Origin: a virus
IMG/VR virus record: IMGVR_UViG_3300019763_000074
Coordinates: 1-29,074 of that record
DNA length: 29,074 nt
Reading direction: 5' to 3' (one strand)
In this document: one piece after another, positions 1 through 13,308 of the stretch
How the letters are laid out: every line of letters begins with the position of its first letter
Position numbering within the stretch: position 1 is the first letter of the stretch
Notes under the pieces: model-generated
Databases searched by the model: none
Seen by the model: only the letters and a program-made list of their open reading frames with translations
What the model was told of the DNA's origin: nothing
Program-made: the position numbers and the translations under genes

Positions 1-1018
1 ATACAGGCCAAGACAATGTAACCTTACCAGTGTCAATATGATTTTGATTAATTCTATATTGTTCAACTTCCTTTGAAGTCGATGTAACATTTGTCCATTC
101 GTCTGGGTAATATTCTGACTCAAACAATACAGGATATGAAATTGATACTTCATCACCTATAACCAATTGACCATCTAACCCCAACTCAGACCACGTAAGA
201 ACACGTCTATTCGTGTACAGTTGATCAAAGTCAACAAACTTTGTAGTAGTTATTCCATTTACAGTTAATTTAATATCAGATTGTACATTGGTATCAAACT
301 TATCACTGTAATCAATACAAGGTGTGTGTTTCAACACCAACGACTTATTCAATATATTATTAGTAGTGATTGTTACATCCTCTACTACCGTTTTAACTTC
401 CTTGAGTACATCCTTCCATTCTGGTTTATATGTCGGCAGAGTAGATCCCTGTAACACATATGATCGTAATAATACATATCCCGGAGAATCAAAGACATAT
501 TCCTTCGGTAACCCTGTGTCATCATCATTTCCCCACCTATAAACCATACTCTCATTCAATGGTGGTGCTGGATTAATCTCAAGTTGATTTGTTGATCTAT
601 GGTATTTCCAATTATATCTGGATGGTGTATATTTTTCTAATGTCTTTAGGAAATCCAATGCTATATGATAACTTACCAAATCAGGTCCACCACTTATCAT
701 GTTCCCAAACATACCTTGTCCAAACATATAGTTCTCTATTGTGAACAGGGTATTAATACCACCACTACGAATCGCATGATCATCATACTCAATAACCTCA
801 CAAACCCCAGCAGGCAAATCATATAAGGTTTTTCCTCCTTGTAACATAATCGTAAAGTATGCTTCTTGTGTCGCGTTACCAATCGCCCACTTGATCCATT
901 TCTGTCTGGCATAATCAATGTGCTCGCTTATCTGGTCATCACACATTTCAACCTTGACCATCGGTTCACCTAAACGATTACGAACTTTTTGTATTAATTG
1001 ACTTCTTGAGATCGCCAT
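1..1018 (-). CDS. Putative virion structural protein, partial (3' end outside window)
   Basis: An open frame runs from an ATG at 1018 to the window edge without a stop (339 codons seen). The N-terminus (MAISRSQLIQKVRNRLG, then 'CDDQISEHIDYARQKWIKWA') resembles the start of virion or neck/tail-associated proteins annotated in many large tailed phages, where a short helical domain precedes beta-rich sequence. That match is from memory of the family and gives no precise function. The start codon overlaps the stop of the preceding gene by one base (TAATG), so the two are probably translationally coupled. It follows terL in the late direction, which suits a head-tail or neck role. No catalytic motif was seen. 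Confidence 0.6.
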   Translation of the reverse strand, partial: MAISRSQLIQKVRNRLGEPMVKVEMCDDQISEHIDYARQKWIKWAIGNATQEAYFTIMLQGGKTLYDLPAGVCEVIEYDDHAIRSGGINTLFTIENYMFGQGMFGNMISGGPDLVSYHIALDFLKTLEKYTPSRYNWKYHRSTNQLEINPAPPLNESMVYRWGNDDDTGLPKEYVFDSPGYVLLRSYVLQGSTLPTYKPEWKDVLKEVKTVVEDVTITTNNILNKSLVLKHTPCIDYSDKFDTNVQSDIKLTVNGITTTKFVDFDQLYTNRRVLTWSELGLDGQLVIGDEVSISYPVLFESEYYPDEWTNVTSTSKEVEQYRINQNHIDTGKVTLSWPV

Positions 1019-1338
1019 TATTCAGATCCTCCATCACCATTATAATTAGGGTCAACATCTGCCTTATTTGGTATTTTATCAAGGACTTCTTGTAGATCCG
1101 TATTAATAGACTCACCTAATTTCTGTGACATCTTTTGTATCTTCTCTTTTAAATTTATAATGTTCTTTTTTAAATTAACAATGCCTTCTTTCTGTCTCCT
1201 ACGTCTTTCGTTATCCTCATCAGGCTTTTCCCCCTTTGCATACTCCAAATCACCCAGAGCAACATTCAAATCGAAAATAGCCTTCTTGTATTCTCTAACC
1301 ATTTCATAATCTTCTTTTATATATCCAAAAAATCTCAT
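1018..1338 (-). CDS. Small charged coiled-coil protein, unknown function
   Basis: This 106-residue protein is very rich in Lys, Glu and Arg. Residues about 15-90 form a likely long helix or coiled coil (for example 'NLKKNIINLKEKIQKMSQKL'), ending in a short acidic, Gly-rich tail. The start is ATG 1338, with a GAGGTG ribosome-binding sequence at 1344-1349. A late-promoter-like box (GATAAATA, 1355-1362 on the complement) overlaps the terL stop just upstream. It lies between terL and a probable structural gene. No family is recognised. A small virion, chaperone or scaffold role is only a guess from composition and position. Confidence 0.7.
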   Translation of the reverse strand: MRFFGYIKEDYEMVREYKKAIFDLNVALGDLEYAKGEKPDEDNERRRRQKEGIVNLKKNIINLKEKIQKMSQKLGESINTDLQEVLDKIPNKADVDPNYNGDGGSE

Positions 1339-1354
1339 ATTTACACCTCAATGA

Positions 1355-1362
1355 TATTTATC
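1355..1362 (-). promoter_or_regulatory. Possible T4-type late promoter (variant GATAAATA)
   Basis: Reads GATAAATA on the minus strand, one base off the T4 late consensus TATAAATA. It lies 17 bases before the start of the coiled-coil gene at 1338. The position matches the exact boxes elsewhere in the window, but the first base differs, so activity is uncertain. Confidence 0.35.
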
Positions 1363-2443
1363 ATTTACTGGCCAACCAAGACCAATCCTCTTCCATTGCA
1401 CCATCCCCAAAATCTGCCAGAACTCCCCACGCCTCATCCTCATTCTCTTCTGCGACAAATTGATATGATTCATCAAACACTTCTTGTTCTAATACAAATA
1501 TTGCCCAGTACAATGCAGATACAAGGTCATCAGCGATATTAACACCAGCATACCTACCGTTACCTACATCTTGAAAGTCGGCTAGTTGTTCAACGGTTCT
1601 TGGGTCAATAATCTCAACACATTTATCTTCAAGTATCTTTTTCATCAAAAGAACTGCCAGTGTTTTTGATTTTGTTGTAGCTCGTATACCCAAATCTCGT
1701 TCTTTACTACCTGTATTTATAAGATTTTCGTTCTCGTATTCCCACCACAGTCTATTTACTACCGGAGCACCCTCTCCATTATTCTCACACATTATATGAG
1801 CATCATTATAATAGTATGAAGTTCGGTTAACAATTGACGCAAAACTGTATACATCTGTATAGTTATCTTCCCATACAGCAACCTGTGTCATCGTTACTGG
1901 TGTGATACTATCAATCCTAAGTATCTGAATAACTGATGAGTTTTCTCCTGTACCTTTGGCTGTATCAACTCCCATTACATAAGTACAACCAGACTTTGGT
2001 TTCTCCCAAATTCTGAACTTACCTAACATATCAAGGAACTCTGGCTCTTTTCTTCGTTTAAATAATCTCTCAATACAAACAGAATCTATAACTGTATTAC
2101 TTGAACCGATAAACTCACAATTGTGGTGAACGAAACCATCACCGTAATACACATCACCACCAGTGACACCCAATAGATCATATACATCTGACCCACCAAG
2201 ATTAATTATCTTTTTTATCTTGACCTCGCCATAATGTCTATGTATGATGGTATCGTTAACAGATAGGTCATCCGCAAACACTTCACCAGAAAGAGTGACA
2301 AATCGGTGACCAACAGAAACTTCACAATACAATCCATTGTCACATTCAAATCTATAACCCTCTTTTTCCAACTTCTGTACACCAACAAAACTTTGAAATC
2401 CTGTAGGTGTCAACACTTTATATTTTGTATTTCCTTTCAACAT
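1361..2443 (-). CDS. 17: Large terminase, C-terminal half: split-intein C-fragment plus nuclease domain
   Basis: 360 residues. Residues 1-108 are a split-intein C-fragment: it opens MLKGNTKYKVLTPTGFQSF, has a block-B-like S-V-G-H at 43-46, and ends in His107-Asn108 before Cys109 (the +1 nucleophile). Residues 109-360 are the gp17 C-extein, starting CEFIGSSNTVID. This is the RNase H-like packaging nuclease, with likely metal ligands Asp160 (GVDTAKG), Glu220 (MCENNGEG) and Asp306 (NIADDLVSA). The intein part closely resembles the C-fragment of AceL-TerL (about 104 residues, similar opening) as I remember it. After splicing with the protein at 3112-3957 it would give a continuous TerL of ordinary size. 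The start, ATG 2443, lies 26 bases inside the endonuclease gene upstream, so coupling is likely. Confidence 0.93.
   Translation of the reverse strand: MLKGNTKYKVLTPTGFQSFVGVQKLEKEGYRFECDNGLYCEVSVGHRFVTLSGEVFADDLSVNDTIIHRHYGEVKIKKIINLGGSDVYDLLGVTGGDVYYGDGFVHHNCEFIGSSNTVIDSVCIERLFKRRKEPEFLDMLGKFRIWEKPKSGCTYVMGVDTAKGTGENSSVIQILRIDSITPVTMTQVAVWEDNYTDVYSFASIVNRTSYYYNDAHIMCENNGEGAPVVNRLWWEYENENLINTGSKERDLGIRATTKSKTLAVLLMKKILEDKCVEIIDPRTVEQLADFQDVGNGRYAGVNIADDLVSALYWAIFVLEQEVFDESYQFVAEENEDEAWGVLADFGDGAMEEDWSWLASK
2120..2443 (-). other. Split intein C-fragment (108 residues) in TerL
   Basis: Encodes residues 1-108 of the TerL C-terminal half. The visible splicing residues are His46 in block B, the penultimate His107 and terminal Asn108. 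The C-extein begins with Cys109, encoded TGT at 2117-2119. The fragment carries nearly the whole intein fold, including block B, which is the mark of the atypical AceL-TerL type of split. Confidence 0.9.
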
Positions 2444-3068
2444 TTTTCCACACCTTACCCTTTATGATCCGTTCAATTTGTTGTGGTGTAACACCATATT
2501 CACCTGCAAACTTCAAACTGAACGCCCTAATGTATGACATTGGTCTTCCATTCTTCATGACTTGACCAACACCTTCTATATATGGCTGGTCTTCAAACAT
2601 TTCAATGATTTGTATAACAATTGATTCTGTCAACTTTGTATTTGGTGGAAGAATCCCCTTACGAGTATCACACCACTTTTTACGCTGTTCTTCGGTGTGA
2701 TTACATCCTTTAAATGGGATACCATCACGTTCCACTCTCTTCTTTGCTGACTCACTCATCTTCTGTCTTGATTCTTCTGTATAAATATATCCTCTGGTTG
2801 TAAAATCATGACAAAGATGGTTACCCTTACCGTCAATTGATTCATTCAATCCATTATTGTAAGTATCATACAACTCTATATAATATTCCTCTCTGACACC
2901 AATATGAGAATAATCATCACTTCTTTCTAATATATCAAATTCAAATGAAAATCCCAAGAACCTATCTGATCTGGAATGGGCTGTCATTCTTCGTTTCAAC
3001 CCTTTGTCAAATGTTGTTCCTATATAAAGTTGACCATCACTTCTGGTTATTTTATAAACTATGTACAT
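2418..3068 (-). CDS. Free-standing GIY-YIG homing endonuclease inside the split terL gene
   Basis: The start is ATG 3068 (216 residues: MYIVYKITRSDGQLYIGTT), because GGAGGAAATT immediately precedes it. An ATG at 3080 is in frame but lacks such a site. The first ~90 residues are a GIY-YIG nuclease domain: a variant YIVYKI / LYIGTT core, the Arg region LKRRMTAHS and a catalytic-Glu helix (REEYYIELYDTYNNGLN). Next come a NUMOD3-like DNA-binding motif (YTEESRQKMSESAKKR, HTEEQRKKW) and a C-terminal helix-turn-helix-like part (YGVTPQQIERIIKGKVWKN). It sits exactly between the two terL halves and has its own exact late promoter. Such enzymes usually cut copies of the gene lacking the insertion and so spread it; that role is inferred from the family. 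Confidence 0.9.
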   Translation of the reverse strand: MYIVYKITRSDGQLYIGTTFDKGLKRRMTAHSRSDRFLGFSFEFDILERSDDYSHIGVREEYYIELYDTYNNGLNESIDGKGNHLCHDFTTRGYIYTEESRQKMSESAKKRVERDGIPFKGCNHTEEQRKKWCDTRKGILPPNTKLTESIVIQIIEMFEDQPYIEGVGQVMKNGRPMSYIRAFSLKFAGEYGVTPQQIERIIKGKVWKNVERKYKI

Positions 3069-3088
3069 AATTTCCTCCATATATACAG

Positions 3089-3096
3089 TATTTATA
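3089..3096 (-). promoter_or_regulatory. T4-type late promoter TATAAATA before the homing endonuclease
   Basis: An exact TATAAATA on the minus strand, 21 bases before ATG 3068. It is followed by the GGAGGA ribosome-binding site. The position lies in the short gap after the terL N-half stop, so the endonuclease can be transcribed separately late in infection. Confidence 0.7.
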
Positions 3097-3111
3097 AAAT
3101 CCTATGAATTG

Positions 3112-3957
3112 TCAACCGAAATTATCATACAGATCCGAAATCTTTATGTCCTGTATAATTCCTGTCGATTCATCCTTTATTGTCACCAAAGAATTTTCAC
3201 CCAAGCAACCAAACTCTTGATTAAATTTGACTTTACCAAGGTTAGACATCTGTTCTGCCGCCCACTCTTCATCCCTTCCGGGAACTGCACGATAATCAAA
3301 ACGAGCGTGTTTAAATGTATTCTTACCTTCTTCCGCCTTTGAATAAATTTCATGGAACTTATTATACAATCCATTTGGTGTGGAAATTATAATAATCTTT
3401 GATTCTTTTGACGCTGAAATTGTTGGGTAGTTTGATGCCCAAAATTCATCTGCTTTCCATGAAGGTTCAACGAAAGCAAACTCATCACAAATCAACATTC
3501 CCATCGGCTCACCACGAAATGAATCTTTTGATGTCGCCGCAATATAAATCTTTGTATGGTTGTCAAACTCTATGGTAGTCTGTGCCCATCCCGGAACTCC
3601 GGGTTTTAACCAAACTGGTAATAATTCATACATGTATTTCAGTCGTGCCAAAAAGTTCTTTGCGGCATCAGCTTTGTTGGATACGATACCAATATTCTTA
3701 TGACTGTGAAAACATGCAAACCATAATGCGTATGCAGCAACAATGGTTGATTTACCTGACTGTCGTGATAACAAACATACATTAAAACGATTGTCTATAA
3801 AGTTTTGTATTAGTTCTCTCTGATAGTCGTATGGTTGAAATGTTTCAACACCACTATCTTGACTAACTATTTTTATATAATGACTAATAAAGTATAATAC
3901 ATCATTCTTACACCTATTAAGTTCTCTAACTTCCGTTGGAGTATAATCATATTCCAA
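3112..3957 (-). CDS. 17: Large terminase, N-terminal half: ATPase domain plus split-intein N-fragment
   Basis: 281 residues when counted from TTG 3957. Residues 1-250 are the packaging motor ATPase of T4 gp17. Walker A is SRQSGKST (64-71), Walker B is MLICDEF with Asp158 and Glu159, and there is a coupling-like motif STPNG (192-196). Cys251 then opens a 31-residue intein N-fragment (CLGENSLVTIKDESTGIIQD...) that ends at a TGA. The start is doubtful: there is no ATG in the frame, and TTG 3957 lacks a ribosome-binding site. The frame is open upstream to a TAG at 4015-4017, and the translation there (GGNVKYDDYVKAPN) looks like native TerL N-terminus. An ATT codon at 4002-4000 follows AGGGAAGG at good spacing and may be the true start. 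It works with the protein at 1361-2443. Confidence 0.9.
   Translation of the reverse strand: MEYDYTPTEVRELNRCKNDVLYFISHYIKIVSQDSGVETFQPYDYQRELIQNFIDNRFNVCLLSRQSGKSTIVAAYALWFACFHSHKNIGIVSNKADAAKNFLARLKYMYELLPVWLKPGVPGWAQTTIEFDNHTKIYIAATSKDSFRGEPMGMLICDEFAFVEPSWKADEFWASNYPTISASKESKIIIISTPNGLYNKFHEIYSKAEEGKNTFKHARFDYRAVPGRDEEWAAEQMSNLGKVKFNQEFGCLGENSLVTIKDESTGIIQDIKISDLYDNFG
3115..3207 (-). other. Split intein N-fragment (31 residues) in TerL
   Basis: Encodes residues 251-281 of the TerL N-half, beginning at the catalytic Cys251 directly after the extein sequence FNQEFG. Canonical split inteins have N-fragments near 100 residues. This one is about a third of that, like AceL-TerL (25 residues). 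The matching C-fragment is at 2120-2443. Confidence 0.88.
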
Positions 3958-4018
3958 ATTAGGAGCTTTTACATAGTCATCATATTTGACGTTACCACCA
4001 ATAACACACCTTCCCTAA

Positions 4019-4052
4019 AATGGGTGACCCCTGTATTTCAGGATCACCCATT
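4019..4052 (-). terminator. Hairpin after phoH / in terL leader
   Basis: A 9-bp stem (4019-4027 with 4044-4052) continues through an inner 4-bp stem (CCTG/CAGG) around a five-base loop. On the minus strand it ends in TTTT and then AGGG. It can terminate phoH transcription. However, the late promoter box at 4060-4067 lies just upstream, so it would also form the 5' end of a terL transcript. Confidence 0.65.
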
Positions 4053-4059
4053 CACATTT

Positions 4060-4067
4060 TATTTATA
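4060..4067 (-). promoter_or_regulatory. T4-type late promoter TATAAATA before terL
   Basis: An exact TATAAATA on the minus strand overlapping the phoH stop codon. Transcription would start near 4054, immediately before the hairpin at 4019-4052. It is the only visible promoter for terL. Confidence 0.65.
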
Positions 4068-5247
4068 AACCTGTCTCTCTAACCATATCGGCTATTGGAC
4101 CTCTTGATTTGTTTCCACCAAGGACAACATGTCCATAGTTAGGTTGTCCTTTGAATAATCTAACCATCCAATTCAATCCATTATTCTCTGCATTCAAATG
4201 AATATTATCAATCTGTCGTACATCTCCTGTACAAATAACTTTTACATTATCCCCCATACGAGAAAGAACCGTTCTCATTTCATCTCGTCCAAGGTTCTGA
4301 ACCTCATCAATCAACACAATTGCATCATCAATGTTCATACCCCGTAAAAAGTTTATAGGTAACATTTCAACTGCCTTATGATTCAGTTCCAACTTGTTTG
4401 TCTCTACATCTTCCCATGCTCTGTTAGCTGGTCTAAGATCGTGTAATTTTTCCATTAAATCCTGAATAGGTCTAAAATATGGATACATTTTATCACTGAC
4501 ATCTCCGGGTAAGAACCCAAGTTCATTACCTATTTCGATGTTTGCTTTAAATATAAAAATCTTCTTGTATTTCTTTTTTTCAAATACCTGATCAAACATT
4601 GATGCTAGTGTGATAAAGGTCTTACCGAATCCTGCCTCTGATTGTATCGTCACTAAATCAATCTCTGGGTCTGTAATTAGTTCTATGGCGGCTTTCTGAT
4701 ACTGTGTCCTTGGTGATACCTTCCATACAGTATTTTCGCCAACTGCTGACTCCTCTCCATACTTGTTATTGAAATATAGTTTCCCTTCATTCCAATAAAA
4801 ACAGTTCTTTTCTAATTGTTCTCCCTCATCAACATTAACAAACCCCGTATATCGTTGTGATTCTGATTGAAATGGGTTACTATCTCTAAACTCTTCTGAT
4901 TCAATACCTAATTTCTGTGCCTTAAATCTTAGAAGATTATCGTTTGTAACAAAGATAGCATCTGTAATCTTATCTTGGTTTGATTGGATCTCTCGTAGAA
5001 TCGAATTATCGGGTGATTCGTGTTTTACCCCGTTATGTATAATTGTTACGTATTCAAAATTTTCTCTGATTACATTTATTGCTCTTGTAACTTGATGTCT
5101 TTTCTTTTGGTTTCCTTTTAGTTTATCTAACTCTTCTATAACAGTAGCAGGAATGTATATATTGTTCTCTTCTCCATTCCTTAAAATTTCAATGCAATTT
5201 TCATTATCCAGTAACACGTTAGTGTCAAGAACGTAATTTTTTTTCAT
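4063..5247 (-). CDS. phoH: PhoH-like protein with N-terminal PIN domain
   Basis: 394 residues. The PIN ribonuclease-like domain covers about 1-130, with the acidic residues of the fold at Asp8 (LDTNVLLD), Glu39, Asp96 and Asp103. A PhoH P-loop ATPase covers about 175-394: Walker A EAGFGKT (204-210), Walker B IVLIDE (310-315), and 'CTGDVRQID' after it. PIN-PhoH fusions (PhoH2/YlaK type) are ATP-dependent RNA-acting proteins in bacteria, and PhoH genes are common in marine phages. The phage role is unknown. It lies between the small and large terminase genes, downstream of gp16 with a 36-base gap. The start is ATG 5247; an AGGAG lies 11 bases upstream, rather far. Confidence 0.9.
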   Translation of the reverse strand: MKKNYVLDTNVLLDNENCIEILRNGEENNIYIPATVIEELDKLKGNQKKRHQVTRAINVIRENFEYVTIIHNGVKHESPDNSILREIQSNQDKITDAIFVTNDNLLRFKAQKLGIESEEFRDSNPFQSESQRYTGFVNVDEGEQLEKNCFYWNEGKLYFNNKYGEESAVGENTVWKVSPRTQYQKAAIELITDPEIDLVTIQSEAGFGKTFITLASMFDQVFEKKKYKKIFIFKANIEIGNELGFLPGDVSDKMYPYFRPIQDLMEKLHDLRPANRAWEDVETNKLELNHKAVEMLPINFLRGMNIDDAIVLIDEVQNLGRDEMRTVLSRMGDNVKVICTGDVRQIDNIHLNAENNGLNWMVRLFKGQPNYGHVVLGGNKSRGPIADMVRETGL

Positions 5248-5283: not shown

Positions 5284-5868
5284 TTATTCACTTGTTTCTG
5301 TACTATCATCGATGGGATCATCAATGGTTTCCACACACACCTCCCTTTGTATTTCATCAGCGTGAATCATATCCAACAGATCTTCTCTGGTCATAACCAT
5401 TACAGTATTATTTGTATCTGTACCTGTTCCTGAAACTCTACTCCCAGCTTTCTCTGCGGCTAATGCGGCTTTGACAGCCACTTCTTTTTCCTTTACTTCT
5501 ACCATCTTCATATTGTATTCATGTTTCCATAATCCAAACGATGAGTTTTGTACGGATGTTGCTGCTGATGTGATTGAATTGATTAATTGACCACACACTT
5601 CATACATTCGTGCGTTCGTCTCACCACCATTAAGAATAGCGTTCTGTGCGGTGTCTAATAGGGTGTTGGCTCTCTCAATATTTGTTAAGAGTATGATATC
5701 AGGGTCTTGATCTTTTTGACCTCTTATAACCTCTGCCAGTTGATTTCTCATATCCCTTATTTCTTGGATTTGTTGTTCGTTCTCTTCTGTTGTATCTATA
5801 TCAAATTCTTGTTCAAGTATATTTGTGTTTACTTGTGAATTAGCTCTGTCTTCATCATACTGAGACAT
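5284..5868 (-). CDS. 16: Probable small terminase subunit (gp16-like)
   Basis: 194 residues from ATG 5868 (MSQYDEDRANSQ), chosen because AGGAG lies about 10 bases upstream. The frame is open to 5976, but that extension has no such site. The N-terminus is acidic. The helical centre reads 'DIILLTNIERANTLLDTAQ' and 'TNARMYEVCGQLINSI', followed by a Lys/Glu/Ala helix and an acidic tail. The central pattern (IERAN.LLD, N.R..EV..Q.INSI) is what I recall for gp16 in marine T4-like phages. Its place before phoH and terL agrees. The small subunit recognises DNA and regulates the gp17 motor. The assignment rests on pattern and position, not on a strong motif. Confidence 0.7.
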   Translation of the reverse strand: MSQYDEDRANSQVNTNILEQEFDIDTTEENEQQIQEIRDMRNQLAEVIRGQKDQDPDIILLTNIERANTLLDTAQNAILNGGETNARMYEVCGQLINSITSAATSVQNSSFGLWKHEYNMKMVEVKEKEVAVKAALAAEKAGSRVSGTGTDTNNTVMVMTREDLLDMIHADEIQREVCVETIDDPIDDSTETSE

Positions 5869-5890
5869 ATATTTTATTCTCCTGTTTACA

Positions 5891-5898
5891 TATTTATT
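5891..5898 (-). promoter_or_regulatory. Possible late promoter (AATAAATA) before gp16-like gene
   Basis: AATAAATA on the minus strand, one base off the T4 late consensus, 23 bases before ATG 5868 and upstream of its AGGAG. The spacing is the same as for the exact boxes elsewhere in the window. Confidence 0.45.
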
Positions 5899-6030
5899 GG
5901 AATGATTTAGACTAAGGTTATTAACCGCCGAGGGTAATATGATATATACTACTACACTATCTGTACCAAGTTTCATCCCTATACATTTTATTTCTTCTAA
6001 TTGTATTTATGTATTTTATATAGAAGATAG

Positions 6031-11783: not shown

Positions 11784-12394
11784 ACATCCCTCAATAATTC
11801 AATATAACCTATTCCATATAATATACCGTCACCACGATTAACATTCCTTATACCAATAAGAGAATTTGGTTTATACCCATCATCACACAACTCAGTTTGA
11901 TATAAACAACACATTTCAATTTTCTCATTAATCACCCCTGTTATATCAACAGCAATATTGAATGTATCATCACCTGAACTACAAGGTATCTTAAATTCTT
12001 GTAAAACTTTAACATTAGATTTATAAGGTCTACATGCGATACGAGTTGCTTTTGATGTTATAACATGATCTTGGTGTATATCACTAATACTATTTGTTAT
12101 AACTCTTTCTGGTTCAAACTTATCAATTTCTTCTTTAATTTGATCTGATAATACATGCAATGGTTTATCAGGTAACGATAAATCATCGTAACCCAATACA
12201 CTACAACTACACCCCAATTTATTCATGTTATTCATAAAAGATGTCTGTCGTTCTATCTTATTTTCAATATCCCTTCCGTTACAAATGGATAACACCTTCA
12301 CTTGTGTTGGATCTTCTTGACACAATCTTATAAGTGTCCCACCTAATCCAAATGACTCATCATCCATGTGTGATACCACTACTAAAGTTTTCAT
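11768..12394 (-). CDS. PIG-L / LmbE family deacetylase
   Basis: 208 residues. The zinc-binding motif SHMDDE (8-13) replaces the usual AHPDDE, keeping His9, Asp11, Asp12 and Glu13. The second metal site is HQDH (107-110), preceded by 'VITNSISD'. The family removes N-acetyl groups from GlcNAc-type sugars, as in GPI-anchor, mycothiol and bacillithiol synthesis and in some antibiotics. The exact substrate here is unknown. The start overlaps the epimerase gene by four bases (ATGA). The ATG 12394 start gives the canonical N-terminus MKTLVVVSHMDDE. Confidence 0.9.
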   Translation of the reverse strand: MKTLVVVSHMDDESFGLGGTLIRLCQEDPTQVKVLSICNGRDIENKIERQTSFMNNMNKLGCSCSVLGYDDLSLPDKPLHVLSDQIKEEIDKFEPERVITNSISDIHQDHVITSKATRIACRPYKSNVKVLQEFKIPCSSGDDTFNIAVDITGVINEKIEMCCLYQTELCDDGYKPNSLIGIRNVNRGDGILYGIGYIELLRDVWRIC

Positions 12395-13308
12395 ATGTTT
12401 TTAAAAATATCCTCTAAACTATATTTACATTCATAATATTGTTTAATCTTGTTGGTGTTGGGATACCTGACGAATATCTCACCGAAGTTTTCATGAGTGG
12501 TCGGTTCGTATCGTATACTTGATTTCGATTCTAGTGTTCCAATACAAATATCAGCCAGTTCTTTTATGGTACACTTATTTTTGTCGTTACCGATATTATA
12601 GATCTCACCATCATGTTTTTTGTCAATAAGAATTTTTAACATATCAACAGCATCCCGTATGTCACAGAAACTCCTAATCTGTGTACCAGAACCATTAATT
12701 ATTAAATCAGATCCTCTTTTTGCACTCCGTACAAACCTTGGTACCACATGACCGTAATATGGTAGTTGTGTTGGACCTACTATATTAAAGAACCTTACGA
12801 TGGTGCTAGGGAATGTATAAGACCGAATCATAAACTCTGACATGAGTTTAGAACACGCATAACCACCTCTAATTTTATATGGTGATAATATCTCTAACTT
12901 GTCTGTCTCCACAGAACCACTAACAAACTTTGTCTCACCGTAAACCTCTGATGTACTTGCGAAAATTACCTTCTTCTGGTACAATTCAAATAAAGGAAAT
13001 AAATGATTACTGATATTTATGTTGTTTTGTAATGTGATATTTGGATTTGATTGTATCAAATCAACACCTATACTTGCTGCAAAATGATATACAAGATCAC
13101 ACTCTTGTATTAACCGTTCTGCTTCAATATTAGAATAATCAGAAGTGTCACCTAAATGTATATTGTGACATTTGATACAAGGATCAATGTTTGACTGTTC
13201 ACCTGTGGAAAAATTATCTATTAATACAACATCATGTCCATCATCCAATAGTGATTTTGATAATGAACTTCCAATAAACCCAGCACCACCAGTAATAAGT
13301 ATTTTCAT
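12391..13308 (-). CDS. NAD-dependent sugar-nucleotide epimerase/dehydratase (extended SDR)
   Basis: 305 residues, full length for the family. The Rossmann motif is GGAGFIG (7-13), with 'DNFSTG' after the second strand binding the NAD ribose. The catalytic Ser/Thr region is 'FASTSEVYG' (116-124), and YxxxK is Tyr150-Lys154 (YACSK). Later segments 'VRFFNIVGPTQ' and 'RSFCDIRDAVDML' are typical of UDP-glucose 4-epimerases and related enzymes of nucleotide-sugar synthesis. The exact reaction cannot be told from sequence. It overlaps its neighbours on both sides by four bases and follows a shorter relative. Confidence 0.93.
   Translation of the reverse strand: MKILITGGAGFIGSSLSKSLLDDGHDVVLIDNFSTGEQSNIDPCIKCHNIHLGDTSDYSNIEAERLIQECDLVYHFAASIGVDLIQSNPNITLQNNINISNHLFPLFELYQKKVIFASTSEVYGETKFVSGSVETDKLEILSPYKIRGGYACSKLMSEFMIRSYTFPSTIVRFFNIVGPTQLPYYGHVVPRFVRSAKRGSDLIINGSGTQIRSFCDIRDAVDMLKILIDKKHDGEIYNIGNDKNKCTIKELADICIGTLESKSSIRYEPTTHENFGEIFVRYPNTNKIKQYYECKYSLEDIFKNI

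What the first reader, a model, noticed from the sequence alone, without database searches (positions are those of the whole stretch)
1361..4002. Large terminase is rebuilt by an atypically split intein of the AceL-TerL type
The terL gene is in two pieces. The first ends with a 31-residue intein N-fragment starting at Cys251; the second begins with a 108-residue C-fragment ending in His-Asn before Cys. Canonical split inteins break near residue 100; this one breaks near 30, as in AceL-TerL (25 + 104). The opening of the C-fragment (MLKGNTKYKVLTPTGFQSF) is like that of AceL-TerL as I remember it. The phage depends on protein trans-splicing for its packaging motor.
Basis: partly seen in the sequence, partly recalled or inferred. 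Interest (0 to 1): 0.85.

Follow-up and report, generated by a model that had tools for sequence, protein, structure and literature searches.

The report
Phage packaging motor with split intein
A T4-like phage encodes its DNA-packaging motor in two pieces that a very unevenly split intein should join as proteins, and the gap between them holds a homing endonuclease gene; this is a new example of a kind already seen in other phages, with relatives that suggest how such uneven splits arise.

Summary
On the minus strand, terL is broken into an N-half (4002-3112) ending in a 31-residue IntN (Cys1) and a C-half (2443-1361) starting with a 108-residue IntC ending HHN before Cys+1. The intein matches the solved atypically split intein Cat (built from TerL inteins; 6dsl) and a profile of other phages' TerL inteins far above shuffles. 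IntN, IntC, endonuclease and extein are all under purifying selection. Most likely mechanism: protein trans-splicing restores TerL, and the endonuclease drives the element into intein-free terL. Intein-free terL exists in close relatives; in one sample an intein-free junction and an intein-bearing contig share 126 identical bases up to the insertion codon. The arrangement is known: Aeromonas phage PX29 was annotated this way. Relatives keep the same break but carry different nuclease classes, and a near-identical Campylobacter phage pair shows the intein contiguous in one and interrupted by an endonuclease at that position in the other. Verdict: a well-supported new member of a known kind. Splicing and homing are inferred, not shown.

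The parts
3112..4002 (-). terL N-half: TerL ATPase domain (N-extein, 265 aa) plus IntN, 296 aa, probable ATT start at 4002 with an AGGGAAGG Shine-Dalgarno-like sequence upstream
   Evidence: Terminase_6N E=2.5e-20; phrog_5989 E=9e-64; orthologues start at the same point with ATG (L042) or GTG (L052)
3112..3207 (-). IntN, 31 aa, CLGENSLVTIKDESTGIIQDIKISDLYDNFG, then stop
   Evidence: HMM of other TerL inteins E=3.3e-5; aligns weakly with CatN 6dsl_A (E=0.72)
2418..3080 (-). homing endonuclease gene (GIY-YIG-like, NUMOD3), 220 aa, or 216 aa from the ATG at 3068 behind GGAGGA; overlaps the start of IntC by 26 nt
   Evidence: phrog_314 homing endonuclease E=1.4e-18; TIGR01453 group I intron endonuclease E=3.8e-10, below its cut-off; NUMOD3 at its cut-off; N-terminal beta-beta-alpha-beta-alpha in the model; pN/pS 0.20, dN/dS about 0.06 against L003
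2120..2443 (-). IntC, 108 aa, MLKGNTKYKVLTPTGFQSF...VSVGH...FVHHN
   Evidence: PDB 6dsl_B CatC E=3e-8; HMM E=2e-22; relatives L003 75%, L004 66%
1361..2119 (-). terL C-extein (nuclease domain, 252 aa) starting Cys+1 CEFIGSS
   Evidence: Terminase_6C E=3e-4, just below its cut-off; PHROG terminase hits; contiguous with the N-extein in intein-free relatives L033-L042
4063..5247 (-). context: PIN-PhoH protein gene upstream of terL
   Evidence: PhoH E=2.7e-43, PIN_4 E=2.3e-21
5284..5976 (-). context: probable small terminase gene
   Evidence: phrog_445 E=1.8e-5

Best explanation
The locus is a fractured terL gene: a mini-intein at a conserved TerL site (FxQEFG | CEFxGS) is broken after about 30 residues by a free-standing GIY-YIG-like homing endonuclease gene. 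The two terminase halves are translated separately, IntN and IntC associate, and class-1 protein trans-splicing (Cys1, block-B His, terminal His-Asn, Cys+1) releases a continuous 517-aa TerL. During co-infection the endonuclease would cut intein-free terL, so that repair copies intein halves and endonuclease together into the rival genome. Shown here: anatomy, homology, selection, and existence of intein-free alleles. Inferred: splicing, DNA cleavage, homing.
For: Intact intein landmarks and homology. dN/dS 0.16 for IntN, 0.16 for IntC, about 0.06 for the endonuclease, 0.10 for the C-extein, window against L003. Homing endonuclease family hits. Precise empty sites in relatives with 78-84% identical TerL, e.g. 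L042 ...VKFQQEFG|CEFIGSSNT. In sample 3300026546, intein-free contig L052 and intein-bearing contig L056 share 126 bp at 100% ending exactly at the TGT codon, and L052 then continues into L056's C-extein sequence. Same layout in PX29, Serratia 92A1, Providencia PSTRCR_127. No Rfam self-splicing RNA in the region.
Against: No splicing or cleavage data. The AlphaFold model of the C-half was useless (pLDDT 29) and the endonuclease model is weak (pLDDT 54, no PDB match below E 0.4). Pfam's GIY-YIG model itself does not hit the window endonuclease; the class rests on TIGR01453, PHROGs and NUMOD3. L052 extends only 11 nt past the TGT codon, so the co-existing empty allele rests on a short overhang.
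Confidence: 0.9

Rival explanations
1. Genes in pieces without splicing: the two TerL polypeptides associate and work as a two-subunit enzyme, as reported for a phage ribonucleotide reductase split by a homing endonuclease, and the intein pieces are dead remnants.
For: The precedent of a gene split by a homing endonuclease that keeps function without splicing is cited in PMC10448857.
Against: Both intein pieces keep catalytic landmarks and are under purifying selection (dN/dS about 0.16); close relatives encode one contiguous TerL; the ends fit a scarless insertion exactly.
Confidence: 0.04
2. An RNA-level intron carrying the endonuclease joins the halves of a contiguous intein before translation, as the IBB_35 authors proposed for part of their terL.
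For: The window endonuclease resembles group I intron endonucleases (TIGR01453), and a real RNA intron splits terL in phage ICP1 (PMC10448857).
Against: No group I or II intron in Rfam even at E 5. The gap is almost wholly coding: 43 nt before the endonuclease ATG, then a 26-nt overlap with IntC. IntC has its own ATG.
Confidence: 0.03
3. Sequencing or assembly artefact, or a decayed terL with a functional copy elsewhere.
For: The record is a 29-kb fragment, so the rest of the genome is unseen.
Against: 100% identical contigs from sample 3300019764 and a 73% identical relative with the same layout; no extra stops or frameshifts; purifying selection on every part.
Confidence: 0.03

Closest known systems
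AceL-TerL / GOS-TerL / Cat atypically split inteins (PMC11766414; PDB 6dsl)
   Same: TerL host protein, Cys1 and Cys+1 as in AceL-TerL and Cat (GOS-TerL has Ser1), IntN of 25-37 aa and IntC of 104-115 aa (here 31 and 108), detectable sequence homology over all of IntC
   Different: Comparison was with the engineered Cat; native AceL-TerL and GOS-TerL sequences were not compared directly, and the gene order of their native loci was not examined
Aeromonas phage PX29 gp17A/17B (GU396103)
   Same: Same TerL site, IntN on the first ORF, GIY-YIG endonuclease and IntC after it; annotated so in GenBank
   Different: In PX29 the endonuclease (Pfam SegE_GIY-YIG plus NUMOD3) is fused in frame to IntC; in the window it is a separate ORF with different family matches (TIGR01453, phrog_314)
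Serratia phage 92A1 and Providencia phage PSTRCR_127 terL loci
   Same: Three overlapping ORFs: TerL-N/IntN, free GIY-YIG gene, IntC/TerL-C
   Different: Distant intein and a SegE-like endonuclease; split not annotated
Fractured genes (Dassa et al. 2009; known here from citations and memory, paper not held)
   Same: Split intein whose halves flank a free-standing homing endonuclease gene
   Different: From memory those inteins break at the canonical position near residue 100 and the endonucleases are Vsr-like; not tested here

Membership tests
Atypically split TerL intein (AceL/GOS/Cat type) | IntN of about 25-37 aa on a separate ORF, IntC of about 100-115 aa beginning the second ORF | tested here: met
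   31 + 108 aa; published lengths in PMC11766414
Atypically split TerL intein (AceL/GOS/Cat type) | Sequence homology to the group | tested here: met
   6dsl_B CatC E=3e-8 over residues 1-107; HMM of other phage TerL inteins E=1.4e-28
Atypically split TerL intein (AceL/GOS/Cat type) | Class-1 residues: Cys1, block-B T/S-x-x-H, His-Asn end, Cys+1 | tested here: met
   CLGEN..., SVGH, VHHN|C
Atypically split TerL intein (AceL/GOS/Cat type) | Trans-splicing activity | not testable with these tools
   needs co-expression
Intein with free-standing homing endonuclease in the gap (fractured gene) | Endonuclease ORF between the intein-bearing halves | tested here: met
   ORF 2418-3080(-), phrog_314 E=1.4e-18
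Intein with free-standing homing endonuclease in the gap (fractured gene) | Empty (intein-free) alleles at the same site in relatives | tested here: met
   L033-L042, L052
Intein with free-standing homing endonuclease in the gap (fractured gene) | Endonuclease cuts the empty site | not testable with these tools
   needs cleavage assay
GIY-YIG homing endonuclease | GIY-YIG catalytic domain | tested here: inconclusive
   TIGR01453 hit below its cut-off, phrog_314/5123 and NUMOD3 hits, YIVYK...LYIG motif and expected secondary structure, but no Pfam GIY-YIG hit and no confident fold match

The most novel reading that the evidence does not exclude
Atypically split inteins arise when homing endonuclease genes of unrelated classes repeatedly enter, or replace each other at, one fixed spot near residue 30 of contiguous TerL inteins. 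Support: the same break at several TerL insertion sites; GIY-YIG, DUF559/Vsr-like, TnsA-like and MobE-annotated nucleases in the gap; the Campylobacter pair CP21 (contiguous) and IBB_35 (same intein, same flanks, endonuclease inserted at that position). The element in this window group may still be polymorphic in nature. The direction of change (gain or loss of the endonuclease) is not yet polarised.
Probability: 0.5. Interest if true: 0.65.

Novelty: new member of a known kind. Interest (0 to 1): 0.45.

Why it matters
Short-IntN split inteins are rare, valued tools for protein labelling, and only a few natural ones have been characterised. This locus adds a natural 31 + 108 pair under purifying selection, with a relative carrying the same endonuclease (L003), one carrying a different endonuclease (L004), and intein-free homologues. 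That set, with the CP21/IBB_35 pair, makes the origin of atypical splits and the homing of a split intein directly testable.

Tried and rejected
RNA intron: Rfam scan of 1000-4300 at E up to 5 gave only two sub-threshold snoRNA matches. Second terL in the record: none. Structure of the C-half: AlphaFold with three sequences failed (pLDDT 29), not used. Endonuclease model: weak, and Foldseek gave nothing below E 0.4; a few low-ranked hits (Slx1-Slx4, UPF0213 proteins, which I know as GIY-YIG-type folds) appear but are not counted as evidence. TTG start at 3957 rejected in favour of ATT at 4002 because orthologues start there with ATG or GTG and a ribosome-binding-like sequence precedes it. AceL-TerL was not compared directly; Cat (6dsl) was used instead. 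Intein tree: site groups cluster, but deep branches are weak, so independent origins of each split are not claimed from it.

Full report
Observation. On the minus strand of the window, small terminase (5976-5284), PIN-PhoH (5247-4063) and terL follow one another. terL is in two ORFs. The N-half carries the terminase ATPase domain (Terminase_6N, E=2.5e-20) and ends with 31 residues beginning at a cysteine. The C-half begins with 108 residues ending VHHN, followed by CEFIGSS and the nuclease domain. The N-half most likely starts at ATT 4002: relatives start at the same codon with ATG (L042) or GTG (L052), and AGGGAAGG precedes it. The two exteins join to 517 aa, 59.2 kDa.

Between the halves lies an ORF of 220 aa (216 aa from the ATG at 3068, which sits behind GGAGGA). 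It matches PHROG 314 'homing endonuclease' over its full length (E=1.4e-18), the NCBIfam group I intron endonuclease model TIGR01453 (E=3.8e-10, below cut-off) and NUMOD3. Its N-terminus reads YIVYK...LYIG and is modelled as beta-beta-alpha-beta-alpha, as expected for GIY-YIG, though Pfam GIY-YIG and Foldseek are silent. The gene overlaps the first 26 nt of the IntC ORF, also in L003.

Intein identity. IntC hits chain B (CatC) of PDB 6dsl, the consensus engineered atypical intein, at E=3e-8 over residues 1-107. PMC11766414 states that Cat was designed from GOS-TerL and AceL-TerL and gives fragment lengths 30+104, 37+115 and 25+104; the window has 31+108. IntN alone hits CatN only weakly (E=0.72). 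An HMM made from 15 TerL inteins of other phages and sites scores the window's IntN+IntC at E=1.4e-28 and IntN alone at 3.3e-5, while the best of 500 shuffles scores 0.37.

Function under selection. Between the window and L003 (73% DNA identity over the region), dN/dS is 0.16 for IntN, 0.16 for IntC, 0.06 for the endonuclease and 0.10 for the C-extein (dS is near saturation, so ratios are approximate). Endonuclease and intein have diverged about as much as the extein, which fits joint descent since these two phages split. In L004 the IntC is 66% identical, but the ORF in front of it is a different nuclease (DUF559/MTES_1575, Vsr-like). So related inteins carry different endonucleases at the same break.

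Mobility. Twenty-six viral loci encode this TerL; many are intein-free, the nearest with 78-84% identity, and the site reads QEFG|CEFIGSS without a scar. In metagenome 3300026546, contig _000172 (L052) ends in an intein-free junction while contig _000139 (L056/L003) has the intein. They share 126 bp at 100% ending exactly at the TGT codon, and the next 11 bases of L052 equal L056's C-extein. The simplest reading is co-existing empty and occupied alleles; because L052 stops 11 nt past the TGT codon, a chimeric assembly tip is not excluded.

Mechanism. Best reading (0.9): separate translation of the halves, IntN-IntC assembly, class-1 trans-splicing to TerL, and endonuclease-driven homing of the whole insert into empty terL. 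Splicing is inferred from anatomy, homology and selection; homing from the endonuclease class and empty alleles. Neither was measured. A two-subunit TerL without splicing, an RNA intron, and an artefact are each unlikely (see rivals).

Comparison with known cases. Aeromonas phage PX29 was annotated in GenBank as 17A 'contains putative N-intein' and 17B 'contains putative GIY-YIG endonuclease and C-intein'. Serratia 92A1 and Providencia PSTRCR_127 have the three-ORF layout at the same TerL site. At the Walker-B site (IDE|CAF), Tequatrovirus HY03 and Yersinia TG1 have a nuclease ORF in the gap (TnsA-like by Pfam in HY03), and Thanatos-2 and G2494 have a similar segment fused to IntN. Vibrio 1.244.A fuses a GIY-YIG domain to IntN, while Va1 fuses a DUF559 nuclease to IntC. 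IntN is 31-41 aa in all cases where it ends at its own stop. The window is therefore a new member of a known kind.

A natural comparison pair. Campylobacter phages CP21 and IBB_35 are 91-93% identical at DNA level around terL. In CP21 the Walker-B intein is contiguous; in IBB_35 about 980 bp carrying the ORF annotated as MobE homing endonuclease replace 19 bp at the position corresponding to the atypical split. IBB_35's IntC also has a 1-nt insertion relative to CP21, either a sequencing error or decay. The IBB_35 authors described 'an intein and an intron' (PMC3322345). Whether the endonuclease was gained by IBB_35 or lost by CP21 is open, but the pair shows that the endonuclease and the atypical split coincide.

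Scores. Specialists would not be very surprised by one more member; the set of related states makes the origin of atypical splits testable. Interest 0.45.

Noticed in passing
L010 3001-4326 with L018/L080 (Campylobacter phages CP39, NCTC12673, CP81, QDYZ): Fletchervirus TerL is split at the Walker-B site by a 31 + 100 aa intein whose halves are encoded about 22-26 kb apart on opposite strands. No paper in the held library mentions Fletchervirus together with intein; CP81 labels the C-half 'terL1'.
   Followed up: partly
L024 532-4818 and L025 505-5775 (Campylobacter phages CP21, IBB_35): TerL carries inteins at three sites (Walker A, just before the Walker-B strand, Walker B); one is split by a T5orf172-type nuclease in CP21, and a second is also interrupted in IBB_35.
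   Followed up: partly
L023 1887-4173 (Vibrio phage EniLVp02): IntN and IntC ORFs overlap by 32 nt with no endonuclease between them: either a split intein that lost its endonuclease or a frameshifted contiguous intein.
   Followed up: partly
L022 828-3044 (Vibrio phage VP-1): One TerL reading frame holds a contiguous intein at Walker A and a second IntN fused to a GIY-YIG domain further on.
   Followed up: no
window 4000-4002: The N-half of terL appears to start with ATT, a rare start codon, also possible in L033; orthologues use ATG or GTG.
   Followed up: partly
L029 2486-4570 (Salicola phage SCTP-2): The large terminase ORF begins with an IntC-like segment followed by a second intein-like segment; its N-half was not located.
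   Followed up: no
window 12391-13308: A nucleotide-sugar epimerase-like gene (phrog_540, E=1.9e-56) lies in the same minus-strand gene array as the head and packaging genes.
   Followed up: no
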